From Euonymus europaeus (taxonomy: Eukaryota; Streptophyta; Magnoliopsida; Celastrales; Celastraceae): a stretch of DNA of 64,000 bases. The notes beneath the pieces were generated by a model that saw only the letters and a list, made by a program, of their open reading frames with translations, did not search any database and was not told the DNA's origin. The stretch is from positions 13,042,501 to 13,106,500 of the forward strand of contig OY756967.1 in the NCBI GenBank assembly GCA_963580455.1. The letters run 5' to 3'. The translations under genes and the position numbers were made by a program. This document shows, one piece after another, positions 22,684 through 49,200 of this stretch. The first letter of the stretch is position 1, and every line of letters begins with the position of its first letter.

Positions 22684-22689
22684 CTATGC

Positions 22690-25570: not shown

Positions 25571-27110
25571 AGGAGCTTTTAACGGTTTTGTCCATTTTTC
25601 ATAGAAAGTTGGTGTTTTGGAATCGAAATAATCATGCGAGCTCATTTTCGTAAAATTTAACATAAAGGAACAATAAAAAGTGTACGCCGAGCAACTTTGA
25701 TTGTCCAAAGTTGCTCAACTCTTTCTATGGAGGAGCTTTTAACAATTTTGTCCATTTGTCATAGAAATTTAATGTTTTGGCATCGAAATAATCTTGGAAG
25801 CTTATACTCGTAAAATTTGACTTAGTAGAACAATATAAATTGTACACCGACCAACTTTGATTGTCCGAAGTTGCTCAACTCTCTCTATGGAGGTGGTTTT
25901 AACGGTTTTATCCATTTGTCATAGAAAGTTGTTGTTTTGGAATCGAAATAATCCTGGAAGCTCATTTTCGTAAAATTTAACATAAAAGAATAATAAAAAG
26001 TGTATACTGAGCAACTTTGATTGTCCAAAGATGCCCATCTCTTTCTATGGAGGTGCTTTTAACGGTTTTGTCCATTTGTCATAGAAAGTTAATGTTTTGT
26101 CATCGAGATAATCCTGGAAGCTTATACTCGTAAAATTTGACTTAGTAGAACTATATAAAGTGTACACCGAGCAACTTTGATTGTCCGAAGATGCTCAACT
26201 CTCTCTATGGTGGAGCTTTTAACGGTCTTTTCCATTTGTCATAGAAAGTTAATGTTTTGGCATCGAAATAATCTTGGAAACTTATACTCGTAAAATTTGA
26301 CTTAGTAGAACAATATAAAGTGTACACCGAGCAACTTTGATTGTCCGAAGTTGCTCAACTCTCTCTATGGAGGAGCTTTTAACGGTTTTGTCTATTTGTC
26401 ATAGAAAGTTGGTGTTTTGGCATCGAAATAATCCTGGAAGCTCATTTTCGTAAAATTTAACTTAGAAGAACAATAAAAAGTGTACACCGAGCAACTTTTA
26501 TAGTCCGAAGTTTCTCAACTCTCTCCATGGAGGAGCTTTTAACGGTTTTGTCTATTTGTCATAGAAAGCTGGTGTTTTGGCATCGAAATAATCCGGGAAG
26601 CTCATTTTCGTAAAATTTAACATAAAAGAACAATAAAAAGGGTACACCGAGAAACTTTGATTGTCAGAAGTTTCTCAACTCTTTCTATGGAGGAGCTTTT
26701 AACGGTTTTGTCCATTTGTCATAGAAAGTTAATGTTTTGGCATCAAAATAATCTTGGAAGCTTATACTCGTAAAATTTGACTTAGTAGAACAATATAAAG
26801 TGTACACCGAGCAACTTTGATTGTCCGAAGTTTCTCAACTCTCTCTATGGAGGAGCTTTTAACGGTTTTGTCCATTTTTTATAGAAAGTTAATGTCTTGG
26901 CATCGAAATAATCTTCGAAGCTTATACTCGTTAAATTTGACTTAGTAGAACAATATAAAGTGTACACCGAGAAATTTTGATTTTCCGAAGTTACTCAACT
27001 CTCTCTATGGAGGAGCTTTTAACGGTTTTGTCCATTTGTCATAGAAAGTTGGTGTTTTGGCATCGAAATTATTCTGGAAGCTCATTTTCGTAAACTTTAA
27101 CTTAGAAGAA
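25571..27110 (+). repeat. 18-mer unit, copy 2, partial and diverged
   Basis: This stretch follows copy 1 in order from the CATGCGAG monomer through the F, A, D and E monomers up to about 27110. It then departs: GCGTACACCGCTC here, GTCTACACCGAGC in copy 1. The two copies differ at many positions and so are clearly older than the 8-mer array. The part after about 26380 also forms the start of the right 22-mer. Confidence 0.65.
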
Positions 27111-29420
27111 CAATAAAAAGCGTACACCGCTCAACTTTCATAGTCCGAAGTTTCTCAACTCTCTATATGGAGGAGCTTTTAACGGTTTTGTCCATTTGTC
27201 ATAGAAAGCTGGTGTTTTGGCATCGAAATTATTCTGGAAGCTCATTTTTGTAAAATTTAACTCAGAAGAACAATAAAAAGCGTACACCGCGCAACTTTGA
27301 TAGTCCGAAGTTTCTCAACTCTCTCTATGGAGGAGCTTTTAACGGTATTGTCCATTTGTAATAGAAAGCTGGTGTTTTGGCATCGAAATAATCCTGGAAG
27401 CTCATTTTCGTAAAATTTAACATAAAAGAACAATATAAAGTGTACACCGAGTAACTTTGATTGTCCGAAGTTGCTCAACTCTCTCTATGGTGGAGCTTTT
27501 AACGATTTTTTCCATTTGTCATAGAAAGTTATTGTTTTGGCATCGAAATAATCTTGGAAACTTATACTCGTAAAATTTGACTTAGTAGAACAATATAAAG
27601 AGTACACCGAGCAACTTTGATTGTCCGAAATTGCTCAACTCTCTCTACGGAGGAGCTTTTAACGGTTTTGTCCATTTGTCATAGAAAGTTGGTGTTTTGG
27701 CATCGAAATAATCCTGGAAGCTCATTTTCGTAAAATTTAACTTAGAAGAACAATAAAAAGTGTACACCGAGCAACTTTGATAGTACGAAGTTTCTCAACT
27801 CTCTCCATGGAGGAGCTTTTAACGGTTTTGTCCATTTGTCATAGAAAGCTGGTGTTTTGGCTTCGAAATAATCCGGGAAGCTCATTTTCGTAAAATTTAA
27901 CATAAAAGAACAATAAAAAGGGTACACTGAGCAACTTTGATTGTCCGAAGTTTCTCAACTCTTTCTATGGAGGAGCTTTTAACGGTTTTGTCCATTTGTC
28001 ATAAAAAGTTAATGTTTTGGCATCAAAATAATCTTGGAAGCTTATACTCGTAAAATTTGACTTAGTAGAACAATATAAAGTGTACACCGAGCAACTTTGA
28101 TTGTCCGAAGTTTCTCAACTCTCTCTATGGAGGAGCTTTTAACGGTTTTGTCCATTTTTTATAGAAAGTTAATGTCTTGGCATCGAAATAATCTTGGAAG
28201 CTTATACTCGTTAAATTTGACTTGGTAGAACAATATAAAGTGTACACCGAGCAATTTTGATTGTCCGAAGTTGCTCAACTCTCTCAATGGAGGAGCTTTT
28301 AACGGTTTTGTCCATTTGTCATAGAAAGTTGGTATTTTGGCATCGAAATTATTCTGGAGGCTCATTTTCGTAAACTTTAACTTAGAAGAACAATAAAAAG
28401 CGTACACCGCGCAACTTTGATAGTCCGAAGTTTCTCAACTCTCTATATGGAGGAGCTTTTAACGGTTTTGTCCATTTGTCATAGAAAGCTGGTGTTTTGG
28501 CATCGAAATAATCCGGGAAGCTCATTTTCGTAAAATTTAACATAAAAGAACAATAAAAAGGGTACACTGAGCAACTTTGATTGTCCGAAGTTTCTCAACT
28601 CTTTCTATGGAGGAGCTTTTAACGGTTTTGTCCATTTGTCATAGAAAGTTAATGTCTTGGCATCGAAATAATCTTGGAAGCTTATACTCGTTAAATTTGA
28701 CTTAGTAGAACAATATAAAGTGTACACCGAGCAATTTTGATTGTCCGAAGTTGCTCAACTCTCTCTATGGAGGAGCTTTTAACGGTTTTGTCCATTTGTC
28801 ATAGAAAGTTGGTGTTTTGGCATCGAAATTATTCTGGAAGCTCATTTTCGTAAACTTTAACTTAGAAGAACAATAAAAAGCGTACACCGCGCAATTTTCA
28901 TAGTCCGAAGTTTCTCAACTCTCTATATGGAGGAGCTTTTAACGGTTTTGTCCATTTGTCATAGAAAGCTGGTGTTTTGGCATCGAAATTATTCTGGAAG
29001 CTCATTTTCGTAATCTTTAACTTAGAAGAACAATAAAAAGTGTACACCGAGCAACTTTGATAGTACGAAGTTTCTCAACTCTCTCCATGGAGGAGCTTTT
29101 AACGGTTTTGTCCATTTGTCATAGAAAGCTGGTGTTTTGGCATCGAAATAATCCGGGAAGCTCATTTTCGTAAAATTTAACATAAAAGAACAATAAAAAG
29201 GGTACACTGAGCAACTTTGATTGTCCGAAGTTTCTCAACTCTTTCTATGGAGGAGCTTTTAACGGTTTTGTCCATTTGTCATAAAAAGTTGGTGTTTTGG
29301 CATCGAAATTATTCTGGAAGCTCATTTTCGTAAAATTTAACTTAGAAGAACAATAAAAAGTGTACACCAAGCAACTTTGATAGTACGAAGTTTCTCAACT
29401 CTCTCCATGGAGGAGCTTTT
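26380..29420 (+). repeat. Right 22-mer HOR, copy 1, short (19 monomers, ~3040 bp)
   Basis: The stretch from about 26380 to 27440 matches 29420 to 30480 at a spacing of 3040 bp. From 27440 onward the match is at 3519 bp. The difference of 479 bp means that three monomers, including the 159-bp copy seen at 30534, are absent here. Minus-strand open frames at 27742, 28382 and 29022 sit 640 bp apart and mark a 4-mer sub-period. Confidence 0.8.
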
Positions 29421-29688
29421 AACGGTTTTGTCTATTTGTCATAGAAAGTTGGTGTTTTGGCATCGAAATAATCCTGGAAGCTCATTTTCGTAAAATTTAA
29501 CTTAGAAGAACAATAAAAAGTGTACACTGAGCAACTTTGATAGTCCGAAGTTTCTCAACTCTCTCCATGGAGGAGCTTTTAACGGTTTTGTCTATTTGTC
29601 ATAGAAAGCTGGTGTTTTGGCATCGAAATAATCCGGGAAGCTCATTTTCGTAAAATTTAACATAAAAGAACAATAAAAAGGGTACACC

Positions 29689-29716
29689 GAGAAACTTTGA
29701 TTGTCCGAAGTTTCTC
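29689..29716. other. Dyad with matched changes in both arms
   Basis: Here the left arm is GAGAAACTT and the right arm AAGTTTCTC, so a change in each arm (C to A, G to T) keeps the 9-bp pairing. The same form occurs at 26649-26676 and 33208-33235, which are copies of the same HOR position. Elsewhere single-arm changes occur without a partner change, for example GAGAAACTT with AAGTTGCTC near 25529. Confidence 0.85.
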
Positions 29717-29908
29717 AACTCTTTCTATGGAGGAGCTTTTAACGGTTTTGTCCATTTGTCATAGAAAGTTAATGTTTTGGCATCAAAATAATCTTGGAAG
29801 CTTATACTCGTAAAATTTGACTTAGTAGAACAATATAAAGTGTACACCGAGCAACTTTGATTGTCCGAAGTTTCTCAACTCTCTCTATGGAGGAGCTTTT
29901 AACGGTTT

Positions 29909-30068
29909 TGTCCATTTTTTATAGAAAGTTAATGTCTTGGCATCGAAATAATCTTCGAAGCTTATACTCGTTAAATTTGACTTAGTAGAACAATATAAAG
30001 TGTACACCGAGCAATTTTGATTTTCCGAAGTTACTCAACTCTCTCTATGGAGGAGCTTTTAACGGTTT
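29909..30068 (+). repeat. Reference monomer, subtype D (160 bp)
   Basis: This A-like variant carries CCATTTTTTATAGAAAG, TTAATGTCTTGG and TATACTCGTTAAATTTGAC. It is confined to about 2.2-3.0 kb and to the region right of about 24.0 kb, where it is one member of the 4-mer and 22-mer units. The dyad is degenerate in this copy (GAGCAATTT against AAGTTACTC). Confidence 0.87.
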
Positions 30069-31827
30069 TGTCCATTTGTCATAGAAAGTTGGTGTTTTGG
30101 CATCGAAATTATTCTGGAAGCTCATTTTCGTAAACTTTAACTTAGAAGAACAATAAAAAGCGTACACCGCTCAACTTTCATAGTCCGAAGTTTCTCAACT
30201 CTCTATATGGAGGAGCTTTTAACGGTTTTGTCCATTTGTCATAGAAAGCTGGTGTTTTGGCATCGAAATTATTCTGGAAGCTCATTTTTGTAAAATTTAA
30301 CTCAGAAGAACAATAAAAAGCGTACACCGCGCAACTTTGATAGTCCGAAGTTTCTCAACTCTCTCTATGGAGGAGCTTTTAACGGTATTGTCCATTTGTC
30401 ATAGAAAGCTGGTGTTTTGGCATCGAAATAATCCTGGAAGCTCATTTTCGTAAAATTTAACATAAAAGAACAATATAAAGTGTACACCGAGCAACTTTTA
30501 TTGTCCGAAGTTGCTCAACTCTCTCTATGGAGGAGCTTCTACGGTTTTGTCCATTTGTCATAGAAAGTTGGTGTTTTCGCATCGAAATAATCCTGAAAGC
30601 TCATTTTCGTAAAATTTAACTTAGAAGAACAATAAAAAGTGTACAACGAGCAACTTTTATAGTCCGAAGTTGCTCAACTCTCTCTATGGAGGAGCTTTTA
30701 ACGGTTTTTTCCATTTTTCATAGAAAGTTGGTGTTTTGGCATCGAAATAATCCTGGAAGCTCATTTTCTTAAAATTTAACATTGAAGAACAATAAAAAGT
30801 GTACACCGAGCAACTTTGATAGTCCAAAGTTGCTCAACTCTCTCTATGGAGGAGCTGTTAACGGTTTTGTCCATTTTTCAAAGAAAGTTGGTGCTTTGAA
30901 ATCGAAATAATCGTGCAAGCTCATTTTCATAAAATTTAACATAAAAGAACAATAAAAAGTGTACACCGAGTAACTTTGATTGTCCGAAGTTGCTCAACTC
31001 TCTCTATGGTGGAGCTTTTAACGATTTTTTCCATTTGTCATAGAAAGTTATTGTTTTGGCATCGAAATAATCTTGGAAACTTATACTCGTAAAATTTGAC
31101 TTAGTAGAACAATATAAAGAGTACACCGAGCAACTTTGATTGTCCGAAATTGCTCAACTCTCTCTACGGAGGAGCTTTTAACGGTTTTGTCCATTTGTCA
31201 TAGAAAGTTGGTGTTTTGGCATCGAAATAATCCTGGAAGCTCATTTTCGTAAAATTTAACTTAGAAGAACAATAAAAAGTGTACACCGAGCAACTTTGAT
31301 AGTACGAAGTTTCTCAACTCTCTCCATGGAGGAGCTTTTAACGGTTTTGTCCATTTGTCATAGAAAGCTGGTGTTTTGGCATCGAAATAATCCGGGAAGC
31401 TCATTTTCGTAAAATTTAACATAAAAGAACAATAAAAAGGGTACACTGAGCAACTTTGATTGTCCGAAGTTTCTCAACTCTTTCTATGGAGGAGCTTTTA
31501 ACGGTTTTGTCCATTTGTCATAAAAAGTTAATGTTTTGGCATCAAAATAATCTTGGAAGCTTATACTCGTAAAATTTGACTTAGTAGAACAATATAAAGT
31601 GTACACCGAGCAACTTTGATTGTCCGAAGTTTCTCAACTATCTCTATGGAGGAGCTTTTAACGGTTTTGTCCATTTTTTATAGAAAGTTAATGTCTTGGC
31701 ATCGAAATAATCTTGGAAGCTTATACTCGTTAAATTTGACTTGGTAGAACAATATAAAGTGTACACCGAGCAATTTTGATTGTCCGAAGTTGCTCAACTC
31801 TCTCAATGGAGGAGCTTTTAACGGTTT

Positions 31828-31987
31828 TGTCCATTTGTCATAGAAAGTTGGTATTTTGGCATCGAAATTATTCTGGAGGCTCATTTTCGTAAACTTTAAC
31901 TTAGAAGAACAATAAAAAGCGTACACCGCGCAACTTTGATAGTCCGAAGTTTCTCAACTCTCTATATGGAGGAGCTTTTAACGGTTT
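31828..31987 (+). repeat. Reference monomer, subtype E (160 bp)
   Basis: This B-like variant has AAATTATTCTGG, GTAAACTTTAACTTAG, AAAAAGCGTACACCGCGC and a TTTCTC right dyad arm, so both the GTGTACAC palindrome and the dyad are damaged. Type E belongs to the right-hand domain (27-63 kb) and recurs as the partner of subtypes D, A and F in the ~640-bp 4-mer. Confidence 0.87.
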
Positions 31988-32939
31988 TGTCCATTTGTCA
32001 TAGAAAGCTGGTGTTTTGGCATCGAAATAATCCGGGAAGCTCATTTTCGTAAAATTTAACATAAAAGAACAATAAAAAGGGTACACTGAGCAACTTTGAT
32101 TGTCCGAAGTTTCTCAACTCTTTCTATGGAGGAGCTTTTAACGGTTTTGTCCATTTGTCATAGAAAGTTAATGTCTTGGCATCGAAATAATCTTGGAAGC
32201 TTATACTCGTTAAATTTGACTTAGTAGAACAATATAAAGTGTACACCGAGCAATTTTGATTGTCCGAAGTTGCTCAACTCTCTCTATGGAGGAGCTTTTA
32301 ACGGTTTTGTCCATTTGTCATAGAAAGTTGGTGTTTTGGCATCGAAATTATTCTGGAAGCTCATTTTCGTAAACTTTAACTTAGAAGAACAATAAAAAGC
32401 GTACACCGCGCAATTTTCATAGTCCGAAGTTTCTCAACTCTCTATATGGAGGAGCTTTTAACGGTTTTGTCCATTTGTCATAGAAAGCTGGTGTTTTGGC
32501 ATCGAAATTATTCTGGAAGCTCATTTTCGTAATCTTTAACTTAGAAGAACAATAAAAAGTGTACACCGAGCAACTTTGATAGTACGAAGTTTCTCAACTC
32601 TCTCCATGGAGGAGCTTTTAACGGTTTTGTCCATTTGTCATAGAAAGCTGGTGTTTTGGCATCGAAATAATCCGGGAAGCTCATTTTCGTAAAATTTAAC
32701 ATAAAAGAACAATAAAAAGGGTACACTGAGCAACTTTGATTGTCCGAAGTGTCTCAACTCTTTCTATGGAGGAGCTTTTAACGGTTTTGTCCATTTGTCA
32801 TAAAAAGTTGGTGTTTTGGCATCGAAATTATTCTGGAAGCTCATTTTCGTAAAATTTAACTTAGAAGAACAATAAAAAGTGTACACCGAGCAACTTTGAT
32901 AGTACGAAGTTTCTCAACTCTCTCCATGGAGGAGCTTTT

Positions 32940-35900
32940 AACGGTTTTGTCTATTTGTCATAGAAAGTTGGTGTTTTGGCATCGAAATAATCCTGGAAGC
33001 TCATTTTCGTAAAATTTAACTTAGAAGAACAATAAAAAGTGTACACCGAGCAACTTTGATAGTCCGAAGTTTCTCAACTCTCTCCATGGAGGAGCTTTTA
33101 ACGGTTTTGTCTATTTGTCATAGAAAGCTGGTGTTTTGGCATCGAAATAATCCGGGAAGCTCATTTTCGTAAAATTTAACATAAAAGAACAATAAAAAGG
33201 GTACACCGAGAAACTTTGATTGTCCGAAGTTTCTCAACTCTTTCTATGGAGGAGCTTTTAACGGTTTTGTCCATTTGTCATAGAAAGTTAATGTTTTGGC
33301 ATCAAAATAATCTTGGAAGCTTATACTCGTAAAATTTGACTTAGTAGAACAATATAAAGTGTACACCGAGCAACTTTGATTGTCCGAAGTTTCTCAACTC
33401 TCTCTATGGAGGAGCTTTTAACGGTTTTGTCCATTTTTTATAGAAAGTTAATGTCTTGGCATCGAAATAATCTTCGAAGCTTATACTCGTTAAATTTGAC
33501 TTAGTAGAACAATATAAAGTGTACACCGAGCAATTTTGATTTTCCGAAGTTACTCAACTCTCTCTATGGAGGAGCTTTTAACGGTTTTGTCCATTTGTCA
33601 TAGAAAGTTGGTGTTTTGGCATCGAAATTATTCTGGAAGCTCATTTTCGTAAACTTTAACTTAGAAGAACAATAAAAAGCGTACACCGCTCAACTTTCAT
33701 AGTCCGAAGTTTCTCAACTCTCTATATGGAGGAGCTTTTAACGGTTTTGTCCATTTGTCATAGAAAGCTGGTGTTTTGGCATCGAAATTATTCTGGAAGC
33801 TCATTTTTGTAAAATTTAACTCAGAAGAACAATAAAAAGCGTACACCGCGCAACTTTGATAGTCCGAAGTTTCTCAACTCTCTCTATGGAGGAGCTTTTA
33901 ACGGTATTGTCCATTTGTCATAGAAAGCTGGTGTTTTGGCATCGAAATAATCCTGGAAGCTCATTTTCGTAAAATTTAACATAAAAGAACAATATAAAGT
34001 GTACACCGAGCAACTTTTATTGTCCGAAGTTGCTCAACTCTCTCTATGGAGGAGCTTCTACGGTTTTGTCCATTTGTCATAGAAAGTTGGTGTTTTCGCA
34101 TCGAAATAATCCTGAAAGCTCATTTTCGTAAAATTTAACTTAGAAGAACAATAAAAAGTGTACACCGAGCAACTTTTATAGTCCGAAGTTGCTCAACTCT
34201 CTCTATGGAGGAGCTTTTAACGGTTTTTTCCATTTTTCATAGAAAGTTGGTGTTTTGGCATCGAAATAATCCTGGAAGCTCATTTTCTTAAAATTTAACA
34301 TTGAAGAACAATAAAAAGTGTACACCGAGCAACTTTGATAGTCCAAAGTTGCTCAACTCTCTCTATGGAGGAGCTGTTAACGGTTTTGTCCATTTGTCAA
34401 AGAAAGTTGGTGCTTTGAAATCGAAATAATCGTGCAAGCTCATTTTCATAAAATTTAACATAAAAGAACAATAAAAAGTGTACACCGAGTAACTTTGATT
34501 GTCCGAAGTTGCTCAACTCTCTCTATGGTGGAGCTTTTAACGATTTTTTCCATTTGTCATAGAAAGTTATTGTTTTGGCATCGAAATAATCTTGGAAACT
34601 TATACTCGTAAAATTTGACTTAGTAGAACAATATAAAGAGTACACCGAGCAACTTTGATTGTCCGAAATTGCTCAACTCTCTCTACGGAGGAGCTTTTAA
34701 CGGTTTTGTCCATTTGTCATAGAAAGTTGGTGTTTTGGCATCGAAATAATCCTGGAAGCTCATTTTCGTAAAATTTAACTTAGAAGAACAATAAAAAGTG
34801 TACACCGAGCAACTTTGATAGTACGAAGTTTCTCAACTCTCTCCATGGAGGAGCTTTTAACGGTTTTGTCCATTTGTCATAGAAAGCTGGTGTTTTGGCA
34901 TCGAAATAATCCGGGAAGCTCATTTTCGTAAAATTTAACATAAAAGAACAATAAAAAGGGTACACTGAGCAACTTTGATTGTCCGAAGTTTCTCAACTCT
35001 TTCTATGGAGGAGCTTTTAACGGTTTTGTCCATTTGTCATAAAAAGTTAATGTTTTGGCATCAAAATAATCTTGGAAGCTTATACTCGTAAAATTTGACT
35101 TAGTAGAACAATATAAAGTGTACACCGAGCAACTTTGATTGTCCGAAGTTTCTCAACTCTCTCTATGGAGGAGCTTTTAACGGTTTTGTCCATTTTTTAT
35201 AGAAAGTTAATGTCTTGGCATCGAAATAATCTTGGAAGCTTATACTCGTTAAATTTGACTTGGTAGAACAATATAAAGTGTACACCGAGCAATTTTGATT
35301 GTCCGAAGTTGCTCAACTCTCTCAATGGAGGAGCTTTTAACGGTTTTGTCCATTTGTCATAGAAAGTTGGTATTTTGGCATCGAAATTATTCTGGAGGCT
35401 CATTTTCGTAAACTTTAACTTAGAAGAACAATAAAAAGCGTACACCGCGCAACTTTGATAGTCCGAAGTTTCTCAACTCTCTATATGGAGGAGCTTTTAA
35501 CGGTTTTGTCCATTTGTCATAGAAAGCTGGTGTTTTGGCATCGAAATAATCCGGGAAGCTCATTTTCGTAAAATTTAACATAAAAGAACAATAAAAAGGG
35601 TACACTGAGGAACTTTGATTGTCCGAAGTTTCTCAACTCTTTCTATGGAGGAGCTTTTAACGGTTTTGTCCATTTGTCATAGAAAGTTAATGTCTTGGCA
35701 TCGAAATAATCTTGGAAGTTTATACTCGTTAAATTTGACTTAGTAGAACAATATAAAGTGTACACCGAGCAATTTTGATTGTCCGAAGTTGCTCAACTCT
35801 CTCTATGGAGGAGCTTTTAACGGTTTTGTCCATTTGTCATAGAAAGTTGGTGTTTTGGCATCGAAATTATTCTGGAAGCTCATTTTCGTAAACTTTAACT

Positions 35901-36325
35901 TAGAAGAACAATAAAAAGCGTACACCGCGCAATTTTCATAGTCCGAAGTTTCTCAACTCTCTATATGGAGGAGCTTTTAACGGTTTTGTCCATTTGTCAT
36001 AGAAAGCTGGTGTTTTGGCATCGAAATTATTCTGGAAGCTCATTTTCGTAAAATTTAACTTAGAAGAACAATAAAAAGTGTACACCGAGCAACTTTGATA
36101 GTACGAAGTTTCTCAACTCTCTCCATGGAGGAGCTTTTAACGGTTTTGTCCATTTGTCATAGAAAGCTGGTGTTTTGGCATCGAAATAATCCGGGAAGCT
36201 CATTTTCGTAAAATTTAACATAAAAGAACAATAAAAAGGGTACACTGAGCAACTTTGATTGTCCGAAGTTTCTCAACTCTTTCTATGGAGGAGCTTTTAA
36301 CGGTTTTGTCCATTTGTCATAAAAA
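32940..36325 (+). repeat. Right 22-mer HOR, copy 3, diverging at its end
   Basis: This copy matches copy 2 until about 36325. After CATAAAAAGTT, copy 2 (32805) continues into a GGTG monomer while this copy continues into an AATG monomer and enters extra 4-mer units. Most of this copy also lies inside the first 6424-bp unit. Confidence 0.82.
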
Positions 36326-39300
36326 GTTAATGTTTTGGCATCAAAATAATCTTGGAAGCTTATACTCGTAAAATTTGACTTAGTAGAACAATATAAAGTG
36401 TACACCGAGCAACTTTGATTGTCCGAAGTTTCTCAACTCTCTCTATGGAGGAGCTTTTAACGGTTTTGTCCATTTTTTATAGAAAGTTAATGTCTTGGCA
36501 TCGAAATAATCTTGGAAGCTTATACTCGTTAAATTTGACTTCGTAGAACAATATAAAGTGTACACCGAGCAATTTTGATTGTCCGAAGTTGCTCAACTCT
36601 CTCTATGGAGGAGCTTTTAACGGTTTTGTCCATTTGTCATAGAAAGTTGGTGTTTTGGCATCGAAATTATTCTGGAGGCTCATTTTCGTAAACTTTAACT
36701 TAGAAGAACAATAAAAAGCGTACACCGCGCAACTTTGATAGTCCGAAGTTTCTCAACTCTCTATATGGAGGAGCTTTTAACGGTTTTGTCCATTTGTCAT
36801 AGAAAGCTGGTGTTTTGGCATCGAAATAATCCGGGAAGCTCATTTTCGTAAAATTTAACATAAAAGAACAATAAAAAGGGTACACTGAGCAACTTTGATT
36901 GTCCGAAGTTTCTCAACTCTTTCTATGGAGGAGCTTTTAACGGTTTTGTCCATTTGTCATAGAAAGTTAATGTTTTGGCATCAAAATAATCTTGGAAGCT
37001 TATACTCGTAAAATTTGACTTAGTAGAACAATATAAAGTGTACACCGAGCAACTTTGATTGTCCGAACTTTCTCAACTCTCTCTATGGAGGAGCTTTTAA
37101 CGATTTTGTCCATTTTTTTATAGAAAGTTAATGTCTTGGCATCGAAATAATCTTGGAAGCTTATACTCGTTAAATTTGACTTAGTAGAACAATATAAAGT
37201 GTACACCGAGCAATTTTGATTGTCCGAAGTTGCTCAACTCTCTCTATGGAGGAGCTTTTAACGGTTTTGTCCATTTGTCATAGAAAGTTGGTGTTTTGGC
37301 ATCGAAATTATTCTGGAAGCTCATTTTCGTAAACTTTAACTTAGAAGAACAATAAAAAGCGTACACCGCGCAACTTTGATAGTCCGAAGTTTCTCAACTC
37401 TCTATATGGAGGAGCTTTTAACGGTTTTGTCCATTTGTCATAGAAAGCTGGTGTTTTGGCATCGAAATAATCCGGGAAGCTCATTTTCGTAAAATTTAAC
37501 ATAAAAGAACAATAAAAAGGGTACACTGAGCAACTTTGATTGTCCGAAGTTTCTCAACTCTTTCTATGGAGGAGCTTTTAACGGTTTTGTCCATTTGTCA
37601 TAGAAAGTTAATGTTTTGGCATCAAAATAATCTTGGAAGCTTATACTCGTAAAATTTGACTTAGTAGAACAATATAAAGTGTACACCGAGCAACTTTGAT
37701 TGTCCGAACTTTCTCAACTCTCTCTATGGAGGAGCTTTTAACGATTTTGTCCATTTTTTTATAGAAATTTAATGTCTTGGCATCGAAATAATCTTGGAAG
37801 CTTATACTCGTTAAATTTGACTTAGTAGAACAATATAAAGTGTACACCGAGCAATTTTGATTGTCCGAAGTTGCTCAACTCTCTCTATGGAGGAGCTTTT
37901 AACGGTTTTGTCCATTTGTCATAGAAAGTTGGTGTTTTGGCATCGAAATTATTCTGGAAGCTCATTTTCGTAAACTTTAACTTAGAAGAACAATAAAAAG
38001 CGTACACCGCGCAATTTTCATAGTCCGAAGTTTCTCAACTCTCTATATGGAGGAGCTTTTAACGGTTTTGTCCATTTGTCATAGAAAGCTGGTGTTTTGG
38101 CATCGAAAATATTCTGGAAGCTCATTTTCGTAAAATTTAACTTAGAAGAACAATAAAAAGCGTACACCTCGCAACTTTGATAGTCCGAAGTTTCTCAACT
38201 CTCTCTATGGAGGAGCTTTTAACGGTATTGTCCATTTGTCATAGAAAGCTGGTGTTTTGGCATCAAATTATCCTGGAAGCTCATTTTCGTAAAATTTAAC
38301 ATAAAAGAACAATAAAAAGGGTACACCGAGCAACTTTGATAGTCCGAAGTTGCTCAACTCTCTCTATGGAGGAGCTTTTAACGGTTTTGTCCATTTGTCA
38401 TAGAAAGTTGGTGTTTTGGCATCGAAATTATTCTGGAACCTCATTTGCGTAAACTTTAACTTAGAAGAACAATAAAAAGCGTACACCGCGCAACTTTGAT
38501 AGTCCGAAGTTTCTCAACTCTCTATATGGAGGAGCTTTTAACGGTTTTGTCCATTTGTCATAGAAAGCTGGTGTTTTGGCATCAAAATTATTCTGGAAGC
38601 TCATTTTCGTAAAATTTAACTTAGAAGAACAATAAAAAGCGTACACCGCGCAACTTTGATAGTCCGAAGTTTCTCAACTCTCTCTATGGAGGAGCTTTTA
38701 ACGGTATTGTCCATTTGTCATAGAAAGCTGGTGTTTTGGCATCGAAATAATCCTGGAAGCTCATTTTCGTAAAATTTAACATAAAAGAACAATAAAAAGG
38801 GTACACCGAGCAACTTTGATAGTCCGAAGTTGCTCAACTCTCTCTATGGAGGAGCTTTTAACGGTTTTGTCCATTTATCGTAGAAAGTTGGTCTTTTGGC
38901 ATCAAAATAATTCTTGAAGCTCATTTTCTTAAAATTTAACGTAGAAGAACAATAAAAAGTGTACACCGAGCAACTTTGATAGTCCGAAGTTGCTCAACTC
39001 TCTCTATGGAGGAGCTTTTAACGGTTTTGTCCATTTGTCATAGAAAGTTGGTGTTTTGGCATCGAAATAATCCTGGAAGCTCATTTACGTAAAATCTAAC
39101 ATAGAAGAAAAATAAAAAGTGTACACCGAGCAACTTTGATAGTCCGAAGTTGCTCAACTCTCTCTATGGAGGAGCTTTTAACGGTTTTGTCCATTTGTCA
39201 TGGAAAATTGGTGTTTTGGCATCGAAATAATCCTGGAAGCTCATTTTCGTAAAATTTAACATAGAAGAACAATAAAAAGTGTACACCGAGCAACTTTGAT

Positions 39301-39781
39301 AATCCGAAATTGCTCAACTTTCTCTATCGATGAGCTTTTAACGGTTTTGTCCATTTGTCATATAAAGTTAATGTTTTAGCATCAAAATAATCCTAGAAGC
39401 TCATTTTCGTAAAATTTGACTTAGTATAACAATATAAATTGTACACCGAGCAACTTTGATTGTCCGAAGTTGCTCAACTCTCTCTATAGAGGACCTTCTA
39501 CGGTTTTGTTCATTTGTCATAGAAAGTTGTTGTTTTCGCATCGAAAAAATCCTGAAAGCTCATTTTCGTAAAATTTAACATAGAAGAACAATAAAAAGTG
39601 TACACCGAGCAACTTTGATAGTCCGAAGTTGCTCAACTCTCTCTATGGAGGAGCTTTTAACGGTTTTTTCCATTTTTCATAGAAAGTTGGTGTTTTGGCA
39701 TCGAAATAATCCTGGAAGCTCATTTTCGAAATAATCATGCGAGCTCATTTTCGTAAAATTTAACATAAAGGAACAATAAAA
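33358..39781 (+). repeat. 40-mer super-repeat, copy 1 (6424 bp)
   Basis: The sequence from about 33358 recurs at +6424. Landmarks include 34780/41204, 36700/43124 and 38461/44885. The length equals 40 monomers plus 24 bases: one +25 insertion (39729), two +1 T-run monomers (37110, 37751) and three -1 monomers (34052, 38266, 39491). It contains the end of the right 22-mer, the 4-mer sub-array and a mixed B/E segment. Confidence 0.88.
36000..37920 (+). repeat. 4-mer sub-array (640-641 bp), three copies
   Basis: Monomers run in the order E, F, A, D three times. Landmarks at 36060, 36700 and 37341 are 640 and 641 bp apart. The 641-bp spacing comes from a seven-T run (CCATTTTTTTATAG) near 37110 that adds one base, and the next copy has the same seven-T run near 37751. 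The corresponding stretch in the next 6424-bp unit is 42424-44344. Confidence 0.83.
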
Positions 39782-39851
39782 AGTGTACACCGAGCAACTT
39801 TGATTGTCCGAAGTTTCTCAACTCTCTCTATGGAGGAGCTTTTAACGGTTT
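39667..39851 (+). repeat. 185-bp monomer with 25-bp register-shift insertion, first occurrence
   Basis: After CTCATTTTCG the sequence does not go on to TAAAATTT. It restarts at AAATAATCATGCGAG and passes CTCATTTTCG a second time, so bases 39729-39753 are extra. The added bases match the middle of the CATGCGAG module monomer. This looks like two monomers joined 25 bp out of register at a shared TCG. Confidence 0.9.
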
Positions 39852-42800
39852 TGTCCATTTTTTATAGAAAGTTAATGTCTTGGCATCGAAATAATCTTCG
39901 AAGCTTATACTCGTTAAATTTGACTTAGTAGAACAATATAAAGTGTACACCGAGCAATTTTGATTTTCCGAAGTTACTCAACTCTCTCTATGGAGGAGCT
40001 TTTAACGGTTTTGTCCATTTGTCATAGAAAGTTGGTGTTTTGGCATCGAAATTATTCTGGAAGCTCATTTTCGTAAACTTTAACTTAGAAGAACAATAAA
40101 AAGCGTACACCGCTCAACTTTCATAGTCCGAAGTTTCTCAACTCTCTATATGGAGGAGCTTTTAACGGTTTTGTCCATTTGTCATAGAAAGCTGGTGTTT
40201 TGGCATCGAAATTATTCTGGAAGCTCATTTTTGTAAAATTTAACTCAGAAGAACAATAAAAAGCGTACACCGCGCAACTTTGATAGTCCGAAGTTTCTCA
40301 ACTCTCTCTATTGAGGAGCTTTTAACGGTATTGTCCATTTGTCATAGAAAGCTGGTGTTTTGGCATCGAAATAATCCTGGAAGCTCATTTTCGTAAAATT
40401 TAACATAAAAGAACAATATAAAGTGTACACCGAGCAACTTTTATTGTCCGAAGTTGCTCAACTCTCTCTATGGAGGAGCTTCTACGGTTTTGTCCATTTG
40501 TCATAGAAAGTTGGTGTTTTCGCATCGAAATAATCCTGAAAGCTCATTTTCGTAAAATTTAACTTAGAAGAACAATAAAAAGTGTACACCGAGCAACTTT
40601 TATAGTCCGAAGTTGCTCAACTCTCTCTATGGAGGAGCTTTTAACGGTTTTTTCCATTTTTCATAGAAAGTTGGTGTTTTGGCATCGAAATAATCCTGGA
40701 AGCTCATTTTCTAAAAATTTAACATTGAAGAACAATAAAAAGTGTACACCGAGCAACTTTGATAGTCCAAAGTTGCTCAACTCTCTCTATGGAGGAGCTG
40801 TTAACGGTTTTGTCCATTTGTCAAAGAAAGTTGGTGCTTTGAAATCGAAATAATCGTGCAAGCTCATTTTCATAAAATTTAACATAAAAGAACAATAAAA
40901 AGTGTACACCGAGTAACTTTGATTGTCCGAAGTTGCTCAACTCTCTCTAGGGTGGAGCTTTTAACGATTTTTTCCATTTGTCATAGAAAGTTATTGTTTT
41001 GGCATCGAAATAATCTTGGAAACTTATACTCGTAAAATTTGACTTAGTAGAACAATATAAAGAGTACACCGAGCAACTTTGATTGTCCGAAGTTGCTCAA
41101 CTCTCTCTACGGAGGAGCTTTTAACGGTTTTGTCCATTTGTCATAGAAAGTTGGTGTTTTGGCATCGAAATAATCCTGGAAGCTCATTTTCGTAAAATTT
41201 AACTTAGAAGAACAATAAAAAGTGTACACCGAGCAACTTTGATAGTACGAAGTTTCTCAACTCTCTCCATGGAGGAGCTTTTAACGGTTTTGTCCATTTG
41301 TCATAGAAAGCTGGTGTTTTGGCATCGAAATAATCCGGGAAGCTCATTTTCGTAAAATTTAACATAAAAGAACAATAAAAAGGGTACACTGAGCAACTTT
41401 GATTGTCCGAAGTTTCTCAACTCTTTCTATGGAGGAGCTTTTAACGGTTTTGTCCATTTGTCATAAAAAGTTAATGTTTTGGCATCAAAATAATCTTGGA
41501 AGCTTATACTCGTAAAATTTGACTTAGTAGAACAATATAAAGTGTACACCGAGCAACTTTGATTGTCCGAAGTTTCTCAACTCTCTCAATGGAGGAGCTT
41601 TTAACGGTTTTGTCCATTTTTTATAGAAAGTTAATGTCTTGGCATCGAAATAATCTTGGAAGCTTATACTCGTTAAATTTGACTTGGTAGAACAATATAA
41701 AGTGTACACCGAGCAATTTTGATTGTCCGAAGTTGCTCAACTCTCTCAATGGAGGAGCTTTTAACGGTTTTGTCCATTTGTCATAGAAAGTTGGTATTTT
41801 GGCATCGAAATTATTCTGGAGGCTCATTTTCGTAAACTTTAACTTAGAAGAACAATAAAAAGCGTACACCGCGCAACTTTGATAGTCCGAAGTTTCTCAA
41901 CTCTCTATATGGAGGAGCTTTTAACGGTTTTGTCCATTTGTCATAGAAAGCTGGTGTTTTGGCATCGAAATAATCCGGGAAGCTCATTTTCGTAAAATTT
42001 AACATAAAAGAACAATAAAAAGGGTACACTGAGCAACTTTGATTGTCCGAAGTTTCTCAACTCTTTCTATGGAGGAGCTTTTAACGGTTTTGTCCATTTG
42101 TCATAGAAAGTTAATGTCTTGGCATCGAAATAATCTTGGAAGCTTATACTCGTTAAATTTGACTTAGTAGAACAATATAAAGTGTACACCGAGCAATTTT
42201 GATTGTCCGAAGTTGCTCAACTCTCTCTATGGAGGAGCTTTTAACGGTTTTGTCCATTTGTCATAGAAAGTTGGTGTTTTGGCATCGAAATTATTCTGGA
42301 AGCTCATTTTCGTAAACTTTAACTTAGAAGAACAATAAAAAGCGTACACCGCGCAATTTTCATAGTCCGAAGTTTCTCAACTCTCTATATGGAGGAGCTT
42401 TTAACGGTTTTGTCCATTTGTCATAGAAAGCTGGTGTTTTGGCATCGAAATTATTCTGGAAGCTCATTTTCGTAAAATTTAACTTAGAAGAACAATAAAA
42501 AGTGTACACCGAGCAACTTTGATAGTACGAAGTTTCTCAACTCTCTCCATGGAGGAGCTTTTAACGGTTTTGTCCATTTGTCATAGAAAGCTGGTGTTTT
42601 GGCATCGAAATAATCCGGGAAGCTCATTTTCGTAAAATTTAACATAAAAGAACAATAAAAAGGGTACACTGAGCAACTTTGATTGTCCGAAGTTTCTCAA
42701 CTCTTTCTATGGAGGAGCTTTTAACGGTTTTGTCCATTTGTCATAAAAAGTTAATGTTTTGGCATCAAAATAATCTTGGAAGCTTATACTCGTAAAATTT

Positions 42801-45800
42801 GACTTAGTAGAACAATATAAAGTGTACACCGAGCAACTTTGATTGTCCGAAGTTTCTCAACTCTCTCTATGGAGGAGCTTTTAACGGTTTTGTCCATTTT
42901 TTATAGAAAGTTAATGTCTTGGCATCGAAATAATCTTGGAAGCTTATACTCGTTAAATTTGACTTGGTAGAACAATATAAAGTGTACACCGAGCAATTTT
43001 GATTGTCCGAAGTTGCTCAACTCTCTCTATGGAGGAGCTTTTAACGGTTTTGTCCATTTGTCATAGAAAGTTGGTGTTTTGGCATTGAAATTATTCTGGA
43101 GGCTCATTTTCGTAAACTTTAACTTAGAAGAACAATAAAAAGCGTACACCGCGCAACTTTGATAGTCCGAAGTTTCTCAACTCTCTATATGGAGGAGCTT
43201 TTAACGGTTTTGTCCATTTGTCATAGAAAGCTGGTGTTTTGGCATCGAAATAATCCGGGAAGCTCATTTTCGTAAAATTTAACATAAAAGAACAATAAAA
43301 AGGGTACACTGAGCAACTTTGATTGTCCGAAGTTTCTCAACTATTTCTATGGAGGAGCTTTTAACGGTTTTGTCCATTTGTCATAGAAAGTTAATGTTTT
43401 GGCATCAAAATAATCTTGGAAGCTTATACTCGTAAAATTTGACTTAGTAGAACAATATAAAGTGTACACCGAGCAACTTTGATTGTCCGAACTTTCTCAA
43501 CTCTCTCTATGGAGGAGCTTTTAACGATTTTGTCCATTTTTTTATAGAAAGTTAATGTCTTGGCATCGAAATAATCTTGGAAGCTTATACTCGTTAAATT
43601 TGACTTAGTAGAACAATATAAAGTGTACACCGAGCAATTTTGATTGTCCGAAGTTGCTCAACTCTCTCTATGGAGGAGCTTTTAACGGTTTTGTCCATTT
43701 GTCATAGAAAGTTGGTGTTTTGGCATCGAAATTATTCTGGAAGCTCATTTTCGTAAACTTTAACTTAGAAGAACAATAAAAAGCGTACACCGCGCAACTT
43801 TGATAGTCCGAAGTTTCTCAACTCTCTATATGGAGGAGCTTTTAACGGTTTTGTCCATTTGTCATAGAAAGCTGGTGTTTTGGCATCGAAATAATCCGGG
43901 AAGCTCATTTTCGTAAAATTTAACATAAAAGAACAATAAAAAGGGTACACTGGGCAACTTTGATTGTCCGAAGTTTCTCAACTCTTTCTATGGAGGAGCT
44001 TTTAACGGTTTTGTCCATTTGTCATAGAAAGTTAATGTTTTGGCATCAAAATAATATTGGAAGCTTATACTCGTAAAATTTGACTTAGTAGAACAATATA
44101 AAGTGTACACCGAGCAACTTTGATTGTCCGAACTTTCTCAACTCTCTCTATGGAGGAGCTTTTAACGATTTTGTCCATTTTTTTATAGAAAGTTAATGTC
44201 TTGGCATCGAAATAATCTTGGAAGCTTATACTCGTAAAATTTGACTTAGTAGAACAATATAAAGTGTACACCGAGCAATTTTGATTGTCCGAAGTTGCTC
44301 AACTCTCTCTATGGAGGAGCTTTTAACGGTTTTGTCCATTTGTCATAGAAAGTTGGTGTTTTGGCATCGAAATTATTCTGGAAGCTCATTTTCGTAAACT
44401 TTAACTTAGAAGAACAATAAAAAGCGTACACCGCGCAATTTTCATAGTCCGAAGTTTCTCAACTCTCTATATGGAGGAGCTTTTAACGGTTTTGTCCATT
44501 TGTCATAGAAAGCTGGTGTTTTGGCATCGAAAATATTCTGGAAGCTCATTTTTGTAAAATTTAACTTAGAAGAACAATAAAAAGCGTACACCTCGCAACT
44601 TTGATAGTCCGAAGTTTCTCAACTCTCTCTATGGAGGAGCTTTTAACGGTATTGTCCATTTGTCATAGAAAGCTGGTGTTTTGGCATCAAATTATCCTGG
44701 AAGCTCATTTTCGTAAAATTTAACATAAAAGAACAATAAAAAGGGTACACCGAGCAACTTTGATAGTCCGAAGTTGCTCAACTCTCTCTATGGAGGAGCT
44801 TTTAACGGTTTTGTCCATTTGTCATAGAAAGTTGGTGTTTTGGCATCGAAATTATTCTGGAACCTCATTTGCGTAAACTTTAACTTAGAAGAACAATAAA
44901 AAGCGTACACCGCGCAACTTTGATAGTCCGAAGTTTCTCAACTCTCTATATGGAGGAGCTTTTAACGGTTTTGTCCATTTGTCATAGAAAGCTGGTGTTT
45001 TGGCATCAAAATTATTCTGGAAGCTCATTTTCGTAAAATTTAACTTAGAAGAACAATAAAAAGCGTACACCGCGCAACTTTGATAGTCCGAAGTTTCTCA
45101 ACTCTCTCTATGGAGGAGCTTTTAACGGTATTGTCCATTTGTCATAGAAAGCTGGTGTTTTGGCATCGAAATAATCCTGGAAGCTCATTTTCGTAAAATT
45201 TAACATAAAAGAACAATAAAAAGGGTACACCGAGCAACTTTGATAGTCCGAAGTTGCTCAACTCTCTCTATGGAGGAGCTTTTAACGGTTTTGTCCATTT
45301 ATCGTAGAAAGTTGGTCTTTTGGCATCAAAATAATTCTTGAAGCTCATTTTCTTAAAATTTAACGTAGAAGAACAATAAAAAGTGTACACCGAGCAACTT
45401 TGATAGTCCGAAGTTGCTCAACTCTCTCTATGGAGGAGCTTTTAACGGTTTTGTCCATTTGTCATAGAAAGTTGGTGTTTTGGCATCGAAATAATCCTGG
45501 AAGCTCATTTACGTAAAATCTAACATAGAAGAAAAATAAAAAGTGTACACCGAGCAACTTTGATAGTCCGAAGTTGCTCAACTCTCTCTATGGAGGAGCT
45601 TTTAACGGTTTTGTCCATTTGTCATGGAAAATTGGTGTTTTGGCATCGAAATAATCCTGGAAGCTCATTTTCGTAAAATTTAACATAGAAGAACAATAAA
45701 AAGTGTACACCGAGCAACTTTGATAATCCGAAATTGCTCAACTTTCTCTATCGATGAGCTTTTAACGGTTTTGTCCATTTGTCATATAAAGTTAATGTTT

Positions 45801-46205
45801 TAGCATCAAAATAATCCTGGAAGCTCATTTTCGTAAAATTTGACTTAGTATAACAATATAAATTGTACACCGAGCAACTTTGATTGTCCGAAGTTGCTCA
45901 ACTCTCTCTATAGAGGACCTTCTACGGTTTTGTTCATTTGTCATAGAAAGTTGTTGTTTTCGCATCGAAATAATCCTGAAAGCTCATTTTCGTAAAATTT
46001 AACATAGAAGAACAATAAAAAGTGTACACCGAGCAACTTTGATAGTCCGAAGTTGCTCAACTCTCTCTATGGAGGAGCTTTTAAAGGTTTTTTCCATTTT
46101 TCATAGAAAGTTGGTGTTTTGGCATCGAAATAATCCTGGAAGCTCATTTTCGAAATAATCATGCGAGCTCATTTTCGTAAAATTTAACATAAAGGAACAA
46201 TAAAA
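39782..46205 (+). repeat. 40-mer super-repeat, copy 2 (6424 bp)
   Basis: This copy is a near-identical tandem repeat of the preceding unit. Differences seen by eye include T34289/A40713, T34526/G40950, G35610/C42034 and C36542/G42966. The junction lies in a shared stretch around AAGTGTACACCGAGC. Left of it is the CATGCGAG monomer of the unit's end, and right of it the TTTCTC and type-D monomers of its start. At the end of copy 2 the sequence instead continues with CCAAAGTTGCTC. Confidence 0.88.
46153..46177 (+). repeat. 25-bp register-shift insertion, second occurrence
   Basis: This is the same extra 25 bases as at 39729-39753, displaced by 6424 bp, which shows it was copied with the super-repeat. 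It marks the end of super-repeat copy 2. Confidence 0.9.
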
Positions 46206-49200
46206 AGTGTACACCGAGCAACTTTGATTTTCCAAAGTTGCTCAACTCTTTCTATGGAGGAGCTTTTAACGGTTTTGTCCATTTGTCATAGAAATTTAAT
46301 GTTTTGGCATCGAAATAATCTTGGAAGCTTATACTCGTAAAATTTGACTTAGTAGAACAATATAAATTGTACACCGAGCAACTTTGATTGTCCGAAGTTG
46401 CTCAACTCTCTCTATGGAGGTGGTTTTAACGGTTTTATCCATTTGTCATAGAAAGTTGGTGTTTTGGCATCGAAATAATCCTGGAAGGTCATTTTCGTAA
46501 AATTTAACATAAAAAAATAATAAAAAGTGTACACTGAGCAACTTTGATTGTCCAAAGATGCCCAACTCTTTCTATGGAGGTGCTTTTAACGGTTTTGTCC
46601 ATTTGTCATAGAAAGTTAATGTTTTGTCATCGAGATAATCCTGGAAGCTTATACTCGTAAAATTTGACTTAGTAGAACTATATAAAGTGTACACCGAGCA
46701 ACTTTGATTGTCCGAAGTTGCTCAACTCTCTCTATGTTGGAGCTTTTAACGGTTTTTTCCATTTGTCATAGAAAGTTAATGTTTTGGCATCGAAATAATC
46801 TTGGAAACTTATACTCGTAAAATTTGACTTAGTAGAACAATATAAAGTGTACACCGAGCAACTTTGATTGTCCGAAGTTGCTCAACTTTCTCTATGGAGG
46901 AGCTTTTAACGGTTTTGTCCATTTGTCATAGAAAGTTGGTGTTTTGGCATCGAAATAATCCTGGAAGCTCATTTTCGTAAAATTTAACTTAGAAGAACAA
47001 TAAAAAGTGTACACCGAGCAACTTTGATAGTCCGAAGTTTCTCAACTCTCTCCATGGAGGAGCTTTTAACGGTTTTGTCCATTTGTCATAGAAAGCTGGT
47101 GTTTTGGCATCGAAATAATCCGGGAAGCTCATTTTCGTAAAATTTAACATAAAAGAACAATAAAAAGGGTACTCCGAGCAACTTTGATTGTCCGAAGTTT
47201 CTCAACTCTTTCTATGGAGGAGCTTTTAACGGTTTTGTCCATTTGTCATAGAAAGTTAATGTTTTGACATCAAAATAATCTTGGAAGCTTATACTCGTAA
47301 AATTTGACTTAGTAGAACAATATAAAGTGTACACCGAGCAACTTTGATTGTCCGAAGTTTCTCAACTCTCTCTATGGAGGAGCTTTTAACCGTTTTGTCC
47401 ATTTTGTATAGAAAGTTAATGTCTTAGCATCGAAATAATCTTGGAAGCTTATACTCGTTAAATTTGACTTAGTAGAACAATATAAAGTGTACACCGAGCA
47501 ATTTTGATTGTCCGAAGTTGCTCAACTCTCCCTATGGAGGAGCTTTTAACGGTTTTGTCCATTTGTCATAGAAAGTTGATGTTTTGGCATCGAAATTATT
47601 CTGGAAGCTCATTTTCGTAAACTTTAACTTAGAAGAACAATAAAAAGCGTACACCGCGCAACTTTGATAGTCCGAAGTTTCTCAACTCTCTATATGGAGG
47701 AGCTTTTAACGGTTTTGTCCATTTGTCGTAGAAAGCTGGTGTTTTGGCATCGAAATTATTCTGGAAGCTCATTTTCGTAAAATTTAACTTAGAAGAACAA
47801 TAAAAAGCGTACACCGCGCAACTTTGATAGTCCGAAGTTTCTCAACTCCCTCTATGGAGGAGCTTTTAACGGTATTGTCCATTTGTCATAGAAAGCTGGT
47901 GTTTTGGCATCGAAATAATCCTGGAAGCTCATTTTCGTAAAATTTAACATAAAAGAACAATAAAAAGGGTACACCGAGCAACTTTGATAGTCCGAAGTTG
48001 CTCAACTCTCTCTATGGAGGAGCTTTTAACGGTTTTGTCCATTTGTCGTAGAAAGTTGGTGTTTTGGCATCGAAATTATTCTGGAAGCTCATTTTCGTAA
48101 ACTTTAACTTAGAAGAACAATAAAAAGCGTACACCGCGCAACTTTGATAGTCCGAAGTTTCTCAACTCTCTATATGGAGGAGCTTTTAACGGTTTTGTCC
48201 ATTTGTCATAGAAAGCTGGTGTTTTGGCATCAAAATTATTCTGGAAGCTCATTTTCGTAAAATTAAACTTAGAAGAACAATAAAAAGCGTACACCACGCA
48301 ACTTTGATAGTCCGAAGTTTCTCAACTCTCTCTATGGAGGAGCTTTTAACGATATTGTCCATTTGTCATAGAAAGCTGGTGTTTTGGCATCGAAATAATC
48401 CTGGAAGCTCATTTTCGTAAAATTTAACATAAAAGAACAATAAAAAGGGTACACCGAGCAACTTTTATAGTCCGAAGTTGCTCAACTCTCTCTATGGAGG
48501 AGCTTTTAACGGTTTTGTCCATTTGTCATAGAAATTTGGTGTTTTGGCATCGAAATAATTCTTGAAGCTCATTTTCTTAAAATTTAACGTAGAAGAACAA
48601 TAAAAAGTGTACACCGAGCAACTTTGATTGTCCGAAGTTGCTCAACTCTCTCTATGGAGGAGCTTTTAACGGTTTTGTCCATTTGTCATAGAACGCTGGT
48701 GTTTTGGCATCGAAATAATCCTGGAAGCTCATTTTCGTAAAATTTAAGATAAAAGAACAATAAAAAGGGTACACCGAGCAACTTTGATAGTCCGAAGTTG
48801 CTCAACTCTCTCTATGGAGGAGCTTTTAACGGTTTTGTCCATTTGTCATAGAAAGTTGGTGTTTTGGCAACGAAATTATTTTAGAAGCTCATTTTCGTAA
48901 ACTTTAACTTAGAAGAACAATAAAAAGCGTACACCGCGCAACTTTGATAGTCCGAAGTTTCTCAACTCTCTATATGTAGGAGCTTTTAACGGTTTTGTCC
49001 ATTTGTCATAGAAAGCTGGTGTTTTGGCATCGAAATTATTCTGGAAGCTCATTTTCGTAAAATTTAACTTAGAAGAACAATAAAAAGCGTACACCGGGCA
49101 ACTTTGATAGTCCGAAGTTTCTCAACTCTCTCTATGGAGGAGCTTTTAACGGTATTGTCCATTTGTCATAGAAAGCTGGTGTTTTGGCATCGAAATAATC

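What the first reader, a model, noticed from the sequence alone, without database searches (positions are those of the whole stretch)
26380..46205. Three-level nested higher-order repeat: 160 bp, ~640 bp, 3519 bp and 6424 bp
Landmarks at 27742, 31261 and 34780 (3519 bp), at 36060, 36700 and 37341 (640-641 bp), and at 34780/41204 and 38461/44885 (6424 bp) show periods inside periods. The 40-mer super-repeat includes part of the 22-mer, and that in turn includes repeated 4-mers. Nested HORs of this depth show successive rounds of amplification acting on ever larger units. In centromere biology HOR structure is linked to recent homogenisation, but this family is not one I recognise.
Basis: seen in the sequence. 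Interest (0 to 1): 0.75.

Follow-up and report, generated by a model that had tools for sequence, protein, structure and literature searches.

The report
Plant centromere-type satellite, freshly duplicated blocks
This is part of a multi-megabase array of a 160-base repeat in the middle of a plant chromosome, and its 'periods within periods' are the traces of recent, overlapping, exactly aligned tandem duplications of 4, 22 and 40 repeats, which is how such arrays are thought to grow rather than a new kind of structure.

Summary
The repeats are real. The whole window is one uninterrupted 160-bp satellite. The 22-monomer (3,519 bp), 40-monomer (6,424 bp) and 4-monomer (640/641 bp) copies are 99.0-99.8% identical over their refined runs, against a 90% background. 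The window lies at 13.04-13.11 Mb of a 25.96-Mb chromosome of an unnamed plant genome, inside a satellite domain of about 4 Mb.

The 'three-level nested HOR' reading is only partly right. The 4-mer array overlaps the 22-mer array by about one monomer. The 40-mer straddles the end of the 22-mer array. The two large duplications have indistinguishable ages; one polarised site favours the 40-mer first. They are three of 30 adjacent blocks of 2-59 monomers found in 264 kb.

All 30 junction monomers have normal length and junctions show no phase preference. This points to homology-directed, out-of-register recombination, not end joining. A colinear inverted segment about 1 Mb away (98.4% identical) lacks the 22- and 40-mer duplications; the window side has 203 unpaired monomers against 27.

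Closest known: maize CentC HORs. New member of a known kind. Centromere function and species are unproven.

The parts
1..64000 (+). Uninterrupted 160-bp satellite array (399 monomers), part of an about 4-Mb satellite domain on C11; no ORF of 100 aa or more, no Rfam match at gathering score
   Evidence: strand by comparison
27420..36217 (+). 22-monomer (3,519 bp) tandem duplication, 2.5 copies: 27420-30938, 30939-34457, 34458-36217 (11 monomers)
   Evidence: 13 differences in 5,374 columns
33339..39762 (+). 40-monomer (6,424 bp) unit, copy 1; length 40x160+24 because it holds one 185-bp monomer at 39578
39763..46186 (+). 40-monomer unit, copy 2; junction with copy 1 lies within columns 17-42 of a normal 160-bp monomer
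   Evidence: 18 differences in 6,426 columns
36058..38139 (+). 4-monomer (640/641 bp) array, 3.25 copies, inside 40-mer copy 1, overlapping the 22-mer array by about one monomer
42482..44563 (+). The same 4-monomer array carried in 40-mer copy 2
17024..22618 (+). 8-monomer (1,279 bp) tandem block, about 4.3 copies, 99.7%
2949..10306 (+). A second 22-monomer (3,519 bp) tandem block at another place, 99.2-99.3%
3908..13984 (+). 31-monomer (4,959 bp) tandem block, overlapping the previous one
48587..56147 (+). 21-monomer (3,381 bp) tandem block, 99.4%
26460..44243 (+). Stretch holding 86 monomers without a partner in the colinear inverted arm at C11:12.003-12.033 Mb (four gaps: 41, 8, 33 and 4 monomers), all 86 in blocks of 98.5% or more: read as the net product of the 22-, 40- and 4-monomer duplications

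Best explanation
A probably centromeric plant satellite array that grows and is homogenised locally by homology-directed, out-of-register recombination, most likely between sister chromatids. A break or stalled fork in one monomer is repaired from another monomer at the same phase but several to dozens of monomers away, so that a block of whole monomers is duplicated next to itself. The 4-, 22- and 40-monomer periods are three such events that overlap in place. Shown: in-register tandem copies, normal-length junction monomers, no phase preference of junctions, decay of block sharing with distance, absence of the two large events from a colinear inverted segment. Inferred: that the partner was the sister chromatid; whether the event was unequal crossing-over or break-induced replication (net gain slightly favours the latter); centromere function.
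For: 30 adjacent blocks of 2-59 monomers in 264 kb; junction monomers are 159-161 bp in 30 of 30, where random end joining should give 158-161 bp about 4 times in 160 by my estimate. The 30 are not independent: two 21-mer blocks are copies carried by the 59-mer, two 4-mer blocks by the 40-mer, and others overlap. In the whole 264 kb only 21 of 1,651 monomers, two of them cut by the ends, fall outside 158-161 bp. Several runs are almost exactly one unit long (40-mer 1.00, 59-mer 1.02, one 31-mer 1.02, 25-mer 1.01), the mark of a single duplication; the others range from 0.65 to 6.13. Junction columns spread over the monomer, Rayleigh p about 0.34 (left) and 0.50 (right). Monomer pairs in shared blocks, per 10,000: 112 at lags 1-9, 320 at 10-19, 0.48 at 400-799, 0 at 800 or more. 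Same family at the midpoint of 9 of 15 other chromosomes; 11 C11 samples from 11.0-14.2 Mb match this stretch at 93.5-99.1%, other chromosomes at 76-91%. Inverted arm: 203 unpaired monomers on the window side, 154 of them in blocks of 98.5% or more, against 27 on the other.
Against: No CENH3 data and no reads. Substitutions between recent copies are alleles already common in the array more often than random new mutation would give (132 of 246 seen more than 20 times, null 31%), so gene conversion also acts and ages are rough; blocks overlap, so these 246 are not independent. The net gain could be partly deletion in the inverted arm; 49 of the 203 window-side monomers lie in no recent block. 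Non-adjacent shared blocks also exist. One block (59 monomers, 1 difference in 9,418 bp) could be an assembly duplication.
Confidence: 0.82

Rival explanations
1. Assembly artefact: the second copies (above all the 6,424-bp one) are collapsed or expanded graph paths, or the two haplotypes laid end to end; likewise the inverted arm is the other haplotype placed backwards.
For: Repeats of this length are hard to assemble; the 59-monomer pair differs at 1 of 9,418 bases. The inverted arm is colinear at 98.4%, as an allele might be.
Against: 18 substitutions spread along the 40-mer, and different private sites in each 22-mer copy; no N in the 264 kb (200 kb fetched, checked; window base counts) nor in the 200-bp samples across the strand switch, though gaps between samples could be missed; identity between arms (98.4%) is well below that between the large tandem copies (99.7%).
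Confidence: 0.12
2. Block duplication by microhomology-mediated end joining, the reading that PMC8997354 reports for adjacent duplications and inversions in maize CEN10.
For: Adjacent duplications with orientation changes nearby are seen in both.
Against: 30 of 30 junctions keep the monomer length and phase; end joining with a few bases of homology would rarely do so.
Confidence: 0.05
3. A regular hierarchical HOR as in human alpha satellite: a fixed large unit amplified many times.
For: Lag peaks at 22 and 40 monomers.
Against: The 40-mer has 2 copies, the 22-mer 2.5, and neighbouring stretches have other unit sizes; no period runs through the 264 kb.
Confidence: 0.05
4. Mainly gene conversion of existing monomers rather than duplication, so that similar blocks are overwritten in place.
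For: Alleles shared between copies and the rest of the array; dispersed, non-adjacent blocks exist.
Against: The 30 blocks are adjacent copies, and the window arm is longer than the inverted arm, with 154 of its 203 unpaired monomers in recent blocks.
Confidence: 0.08

Closest known systems
CentC higher-order repeats of maize CEN10 (Wolfgruber et al. 2016, PMC4806543; abstract and passages seen)
   Same: Plant centromeric satellite; HORs found as segmental duplications, the youngest dated one an adjacent duplication of 10 monomers; adjoining inverted arrays; dates of 98-498 thousand years.
   Different: Different satellite; here blocks reach 59 monomers, the 264 kb examined is not broken by retroelements, and junctions keep the monomer phase. 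In maize a 22.7-kb duplication was put down to a 5-nt match; the loss of one CentC monomer was put down to homology-mediated recombination.
Irregular local HORs of the Arabidopsis 178-bp centromere satellite (recalled; the 2023 paper was not held)
   Same: Many small, locally shared monomer blocks without one dominant period (recalled).
   Different: Monomer of 160 bp; no sequence link was tested.
Human alpha-satellite HORs, including 'cascading' HORs (PMC11050224 and others; search listing only)
   Same: Monomers differ among themselves and sets of them are duplicated together.
   Different: No single unit repeated many times in the 264 kb examined; no regular cascade.
CANR4 satellite of Rosa (PMC7262465; passages seen)
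   Same: 159-160 bp monomer, pericentromeric in a plant.
   Different: Neither CANR4 primer occurs in the window at up to 3 mismatches; the genome here has 16 chromosome-sized contigs, while dogroses have 2n = 5x = 35 (abstract), a base number of 7.

Membership tests
Plant centromeric satellite | Tandem array of nucleosome-scale monomers, megabases long, one main site per chromosome | tested here: met
   160-bp monomers; on C11 satellite in every spot sample from 10.25 to 14.45 Mb except the retroelement samples at 12.794-12.801 Mb; none at 10.0, 14.6, 15.0 and 15.6 Mb. The rest of the arms was not sampled.
Plant centromeric satellite | Same family on most chromosomes | tested here: met
   Present in the single 340-bp midpoint sample of 9 of 15 other chromosomes, one of them (C9) only 75% alike and one (C1) over 177 columns. 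The other 6 were sampled at one point each, so absence there is not shown.
Plant centromeric satellite | Bound by CENH3 | not testable with these tools
   No chromatin data
Regular HOR array (alpha-satellite type) | One multi-monomer unit repeated many times in tandem at 97-100% | tested here: not met
   40-mer 2.0 copies, 22-mer 2.5 copies; 30 blocks of many sizes in 264 kb; the rest of the 4-Mb domain was not read
Nested or cascading HOR | Smaller HOR units wholly contained and repeated within larger ones at each level | tested here: not met
   4-mer array overlaps the 22-mer array by about one monomer; the 40-mer straddles the end of the 22-mer array; the 4-mer array does sit inside the 40-mer
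Local irregular HORs (CentC type) | Adjacent duplications of varied size, sharing that decays with distance | tested here: met
CANR4 (Rosa) | Sequence match | tested here: not met
   0 matches to either primer at up to 3 mismatches in the window

The most novel reading that the evidence does not exclude
The window and the inverted segment at 12.003-12.033 Mb are two halves of one ancestral stretch caught before and after expansion: the window half is nearly twice as long (362 against 186 monomers over the aligned span) mostly by recent duplication, so the recombination in this centromere is strongly biased to gain, as break-induced replication predicts and neutral unequal exchange does not.
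Probability: 0.25. Interest if true: 0.6.

Novelty: new member of a known kind. Interest (0 to 1): 0.36.

Why it matters
It is a clean natural record of how a centromere-type satellite grows: single duplications can be ranked by age, their junctions placed within tens of bases, and gain weighed against loss with an inverted paralogous arm as outgroup. In-phase junctions speak for homologous recombination over end joining, a point that the review PMC8997354 (passages seen) treats as open.

Tried and rejected
Species: genome size (443.4 Mb), 16 chromosome-sized contigs (22.6-32.8 Mb) and TTTAGGG telomeres say a plant; paper searches for such a genome gave no fit. Family in print: six 17-18-mers of the consensus (three places, both strands) were found in 0 papers of the open library; subscription papers and supplements were not searched.

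CANR4 not met. No ORF of 100 aa or more and no Rfam match in the window.

A 9-bp dyad (GAGCAACTT...AAGTTGCTC) is in the consensus; 24 of 2,000 shuffled consensuses had one as good. It shows no covariation between arms and only 766 of 1,651 monomers keep all nine pairs; whole-monomer folding is no better than shuffles (z -0.60). Not used as evidence.

Hot spot for junctions within the monomer: not found. Ordering the 22- and 40-mer events: too few sites. Pfam on three pieces of the retroelement: 1 of 3 matched.

Full report
WHAT THE WINDOW IS. Tandem Repeats Finder reads all 64,000 bases as one array of period 160. There is no ORF of 100 aa or more and no Rfam match at gathering score. The window is C11:13,042,501-13,106,500 of a 443.4-Mb genome in 30 contigs. 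I saw the length of 21 of the 30; 16 are chromosome-sized, 22.6-32.8 Mb, and make up about 440 Mb (C11, the others). The end of C11 and the starts of C2, C4, C5, C6 and C12 carry the TTTAGGG telomere, so it is a plant. The species stays unknown.

SETTING. Spot samples show the same satellite on C11 from 10.25 to 14.45 Mb and none at 10.0, 14.6, 15.0 or 15.6 Mb. Orientation changes at least three times: plus at 10.25-10.8, minus at 11.0-12.792, plus at 12.802-13.325, minus at 13.34-14.45. The change near 12.79-12.80 Mb coincides with a non-satellite stretch of less than 10 kb; one of three ORF pieces tested from it matches a retrotransposon-type aspartic protease on the minus strand (RVP_2, E 6e-10). 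Its edges could not be read. The midpoint of 9 of 15 other chromosomes also falls in this family. I compared 13 of the 18 satellite spot samples of C11 with the 264-kb stretch: 11 from 11.0 to 14.2 Mb match best at 93.5-99.1%, two at the left edge (10.25, 10.5 Mb) at 89.2% and 96.8%; the 9 samples of other chromosomes reach 76-91%.

THE OBSERVATION. I cut 264 kb (C11:12,912,501-13,176,500) into 1,651 monomers; 1,630 are 158-161 bp long. Any two monomers are on average 89.8% identical. In the finding interval the lag profile, among lags up to 59, peaks at 40 and 22 monomers, with 44, 52, 8, 4 and 48 also above the largest of 500 order shuffles. The 40-mer copies (33339-39762, 39763-46186) differ at 23 bases, 5 of them just outside the junction at the left edge, leaving 18 in 6,426 columns. 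The 22-mer copies differ at 13 in 5,374 columns. The 4-mer copies differ at 8 in 1,342 columns in the first 40-mer copy and 13 in 1,342 in the second.

NESTING. The 22-mer array ends at about 36217; the 4-mer array begins in the monomer at 36058, so they overlap by about one monomer. The 40-mer unit starts inside the second 22-mer copy. So the 4-mer array is inside the 40-mer, the 22-mer array is cut by it, and the 4-mer is not part of the 22-mer, apart from weaker lag-4 similarity there (up to 97.5% in single monomers). Over the 11 monomers present four times, ten sites vary. With the inverted arm as outgroup, one site is shared derived in the three 22-mer copies, two adjacent ones in the first two copies, and none in the two 40-mer copies alone; one more (column 16 of the first monomer) sets the first copy apart but lies just outside its junction. 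That leans to the 40-mer being first, but rests on one site, which conversion could also explain.

HOW IT FORMED. In 264 kb, 30 adjacent blocks of 2-59 monomers pass my filter (monomer run at least 0.85 unit, mean identity at least 97.5%, score above 0.3). They are not 30 independent events: at least two are copies carried by larger blocks, and some overlap. They cover 858 of 1,651 monomers, and 287 of 399 in the window. The junction monomer is of normal length, 159-161 bp, in 30 of 30. Junction columns show no preference. Sharing of blocks falls steeply with distance and is nil beyond 800 monomers within the 264 kb. These features fit out-of-register homologous repair, by unequal exchange or break-induced replication, and do not fit end joining. 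The review PMC8997354 (passages) describes both models. At a recalled plant rate of 7e-9 per site per generation the 40-mer would be about 200,000 generations old; conversion makes this rough.

THE INVERTED ARM. C11:12,003,001-12,033,000, reverse-complemented, aligns in order with window positions 15.6-73.6 kb (the last 9.6 kb beyond the window): 159 of 188 monomers pair at a mean of 98.4%; the best ungapped segment scores 118 against 10.4-12.0 in 5 order shuffles. Since same-strand sharing vanishes beyond about 128 kb, this is a large inverted duplication (or misplaced haplotype), not ordinary local sharing. The arm has neither the 22- nor the 40-mer, only traces of the 4-mer; its own blocks are a 9-monomer one (99.8%) and a weaker 19-monomer one (96.8%). 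Unpaired monomers number 203 on the window side and 27 on the other; 154 of the 203 lie in blocks of 98.5% or more. So the window side most likely grew after the arms separated; some loss in the other arm is not excluded.

AGAINST. No reads and no CENH3 data were available. Substitutions between recent copies are often alleles found elsewhere (132 of 246 seen more than 20 times; null 31%; transitions 103, transversions 143), so conversion contributes; overlapping blocks make these counts dependent. The 59-monomer pair (1 difference in 9,418 bp) may be an artefact. A genome-wide census of the family failed because the genome search answered only once (a capped list).

VERDICT. Real, well above chance, and of a known kind: local higher-order duplications in a plant satellite, closest to the adjacent CentC duplications of maize CEN10 (PMC4806543, abstract and passages). 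Fragments of the consensus matched no paper in the open library.

Noticed in passing
C11:12,987,448-13,006,283 (left of the window; loci L016-L018): A 59-monomer (9,418 bp) tandem duplication whose copies differ at one base: the youngest large event in the 264 kb, or an assembly duplication.
   Followed up: partly
C11:12,794,001-12,801,000 (L118, L119, L042, L111): A non-satellite stretch with a minus-strand retrotransposon-type protease sits where the satellite changes strand. Its edges and LTRs could not be read.
   Followed up: partly
C11:13,172-13,180 kb (L028, L101): Similarity of monomers to the consensus drops from about 0.94 to 0.88-0.90 and is back at 0.95 in the sample at 13.25 Mb: perhaps an edge of a homogenised domain.
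   Followed up: no
window 39578, 46002, 50186/50363, 53566: Monomers of 167-185 bp with an internal duplication of about 25 bp, which explains why the 40-mer is 6,424 and not 6,400 bp.
   Followed up: yes
starts of contigs C7, C8, C13, C14 (L058, L059, L063, L064): By eye these contig starts share a non-telomeric sequence (around CTCTACAATCCTGG, on either strand): perhaps a subtelomeric repeat.
   Followed up: no
G000:C9:13,579,000 (L080): The satellite there is only about 75% like the C11 consensus, so C9 may carry a diverged subfamily.
   Followed up: no
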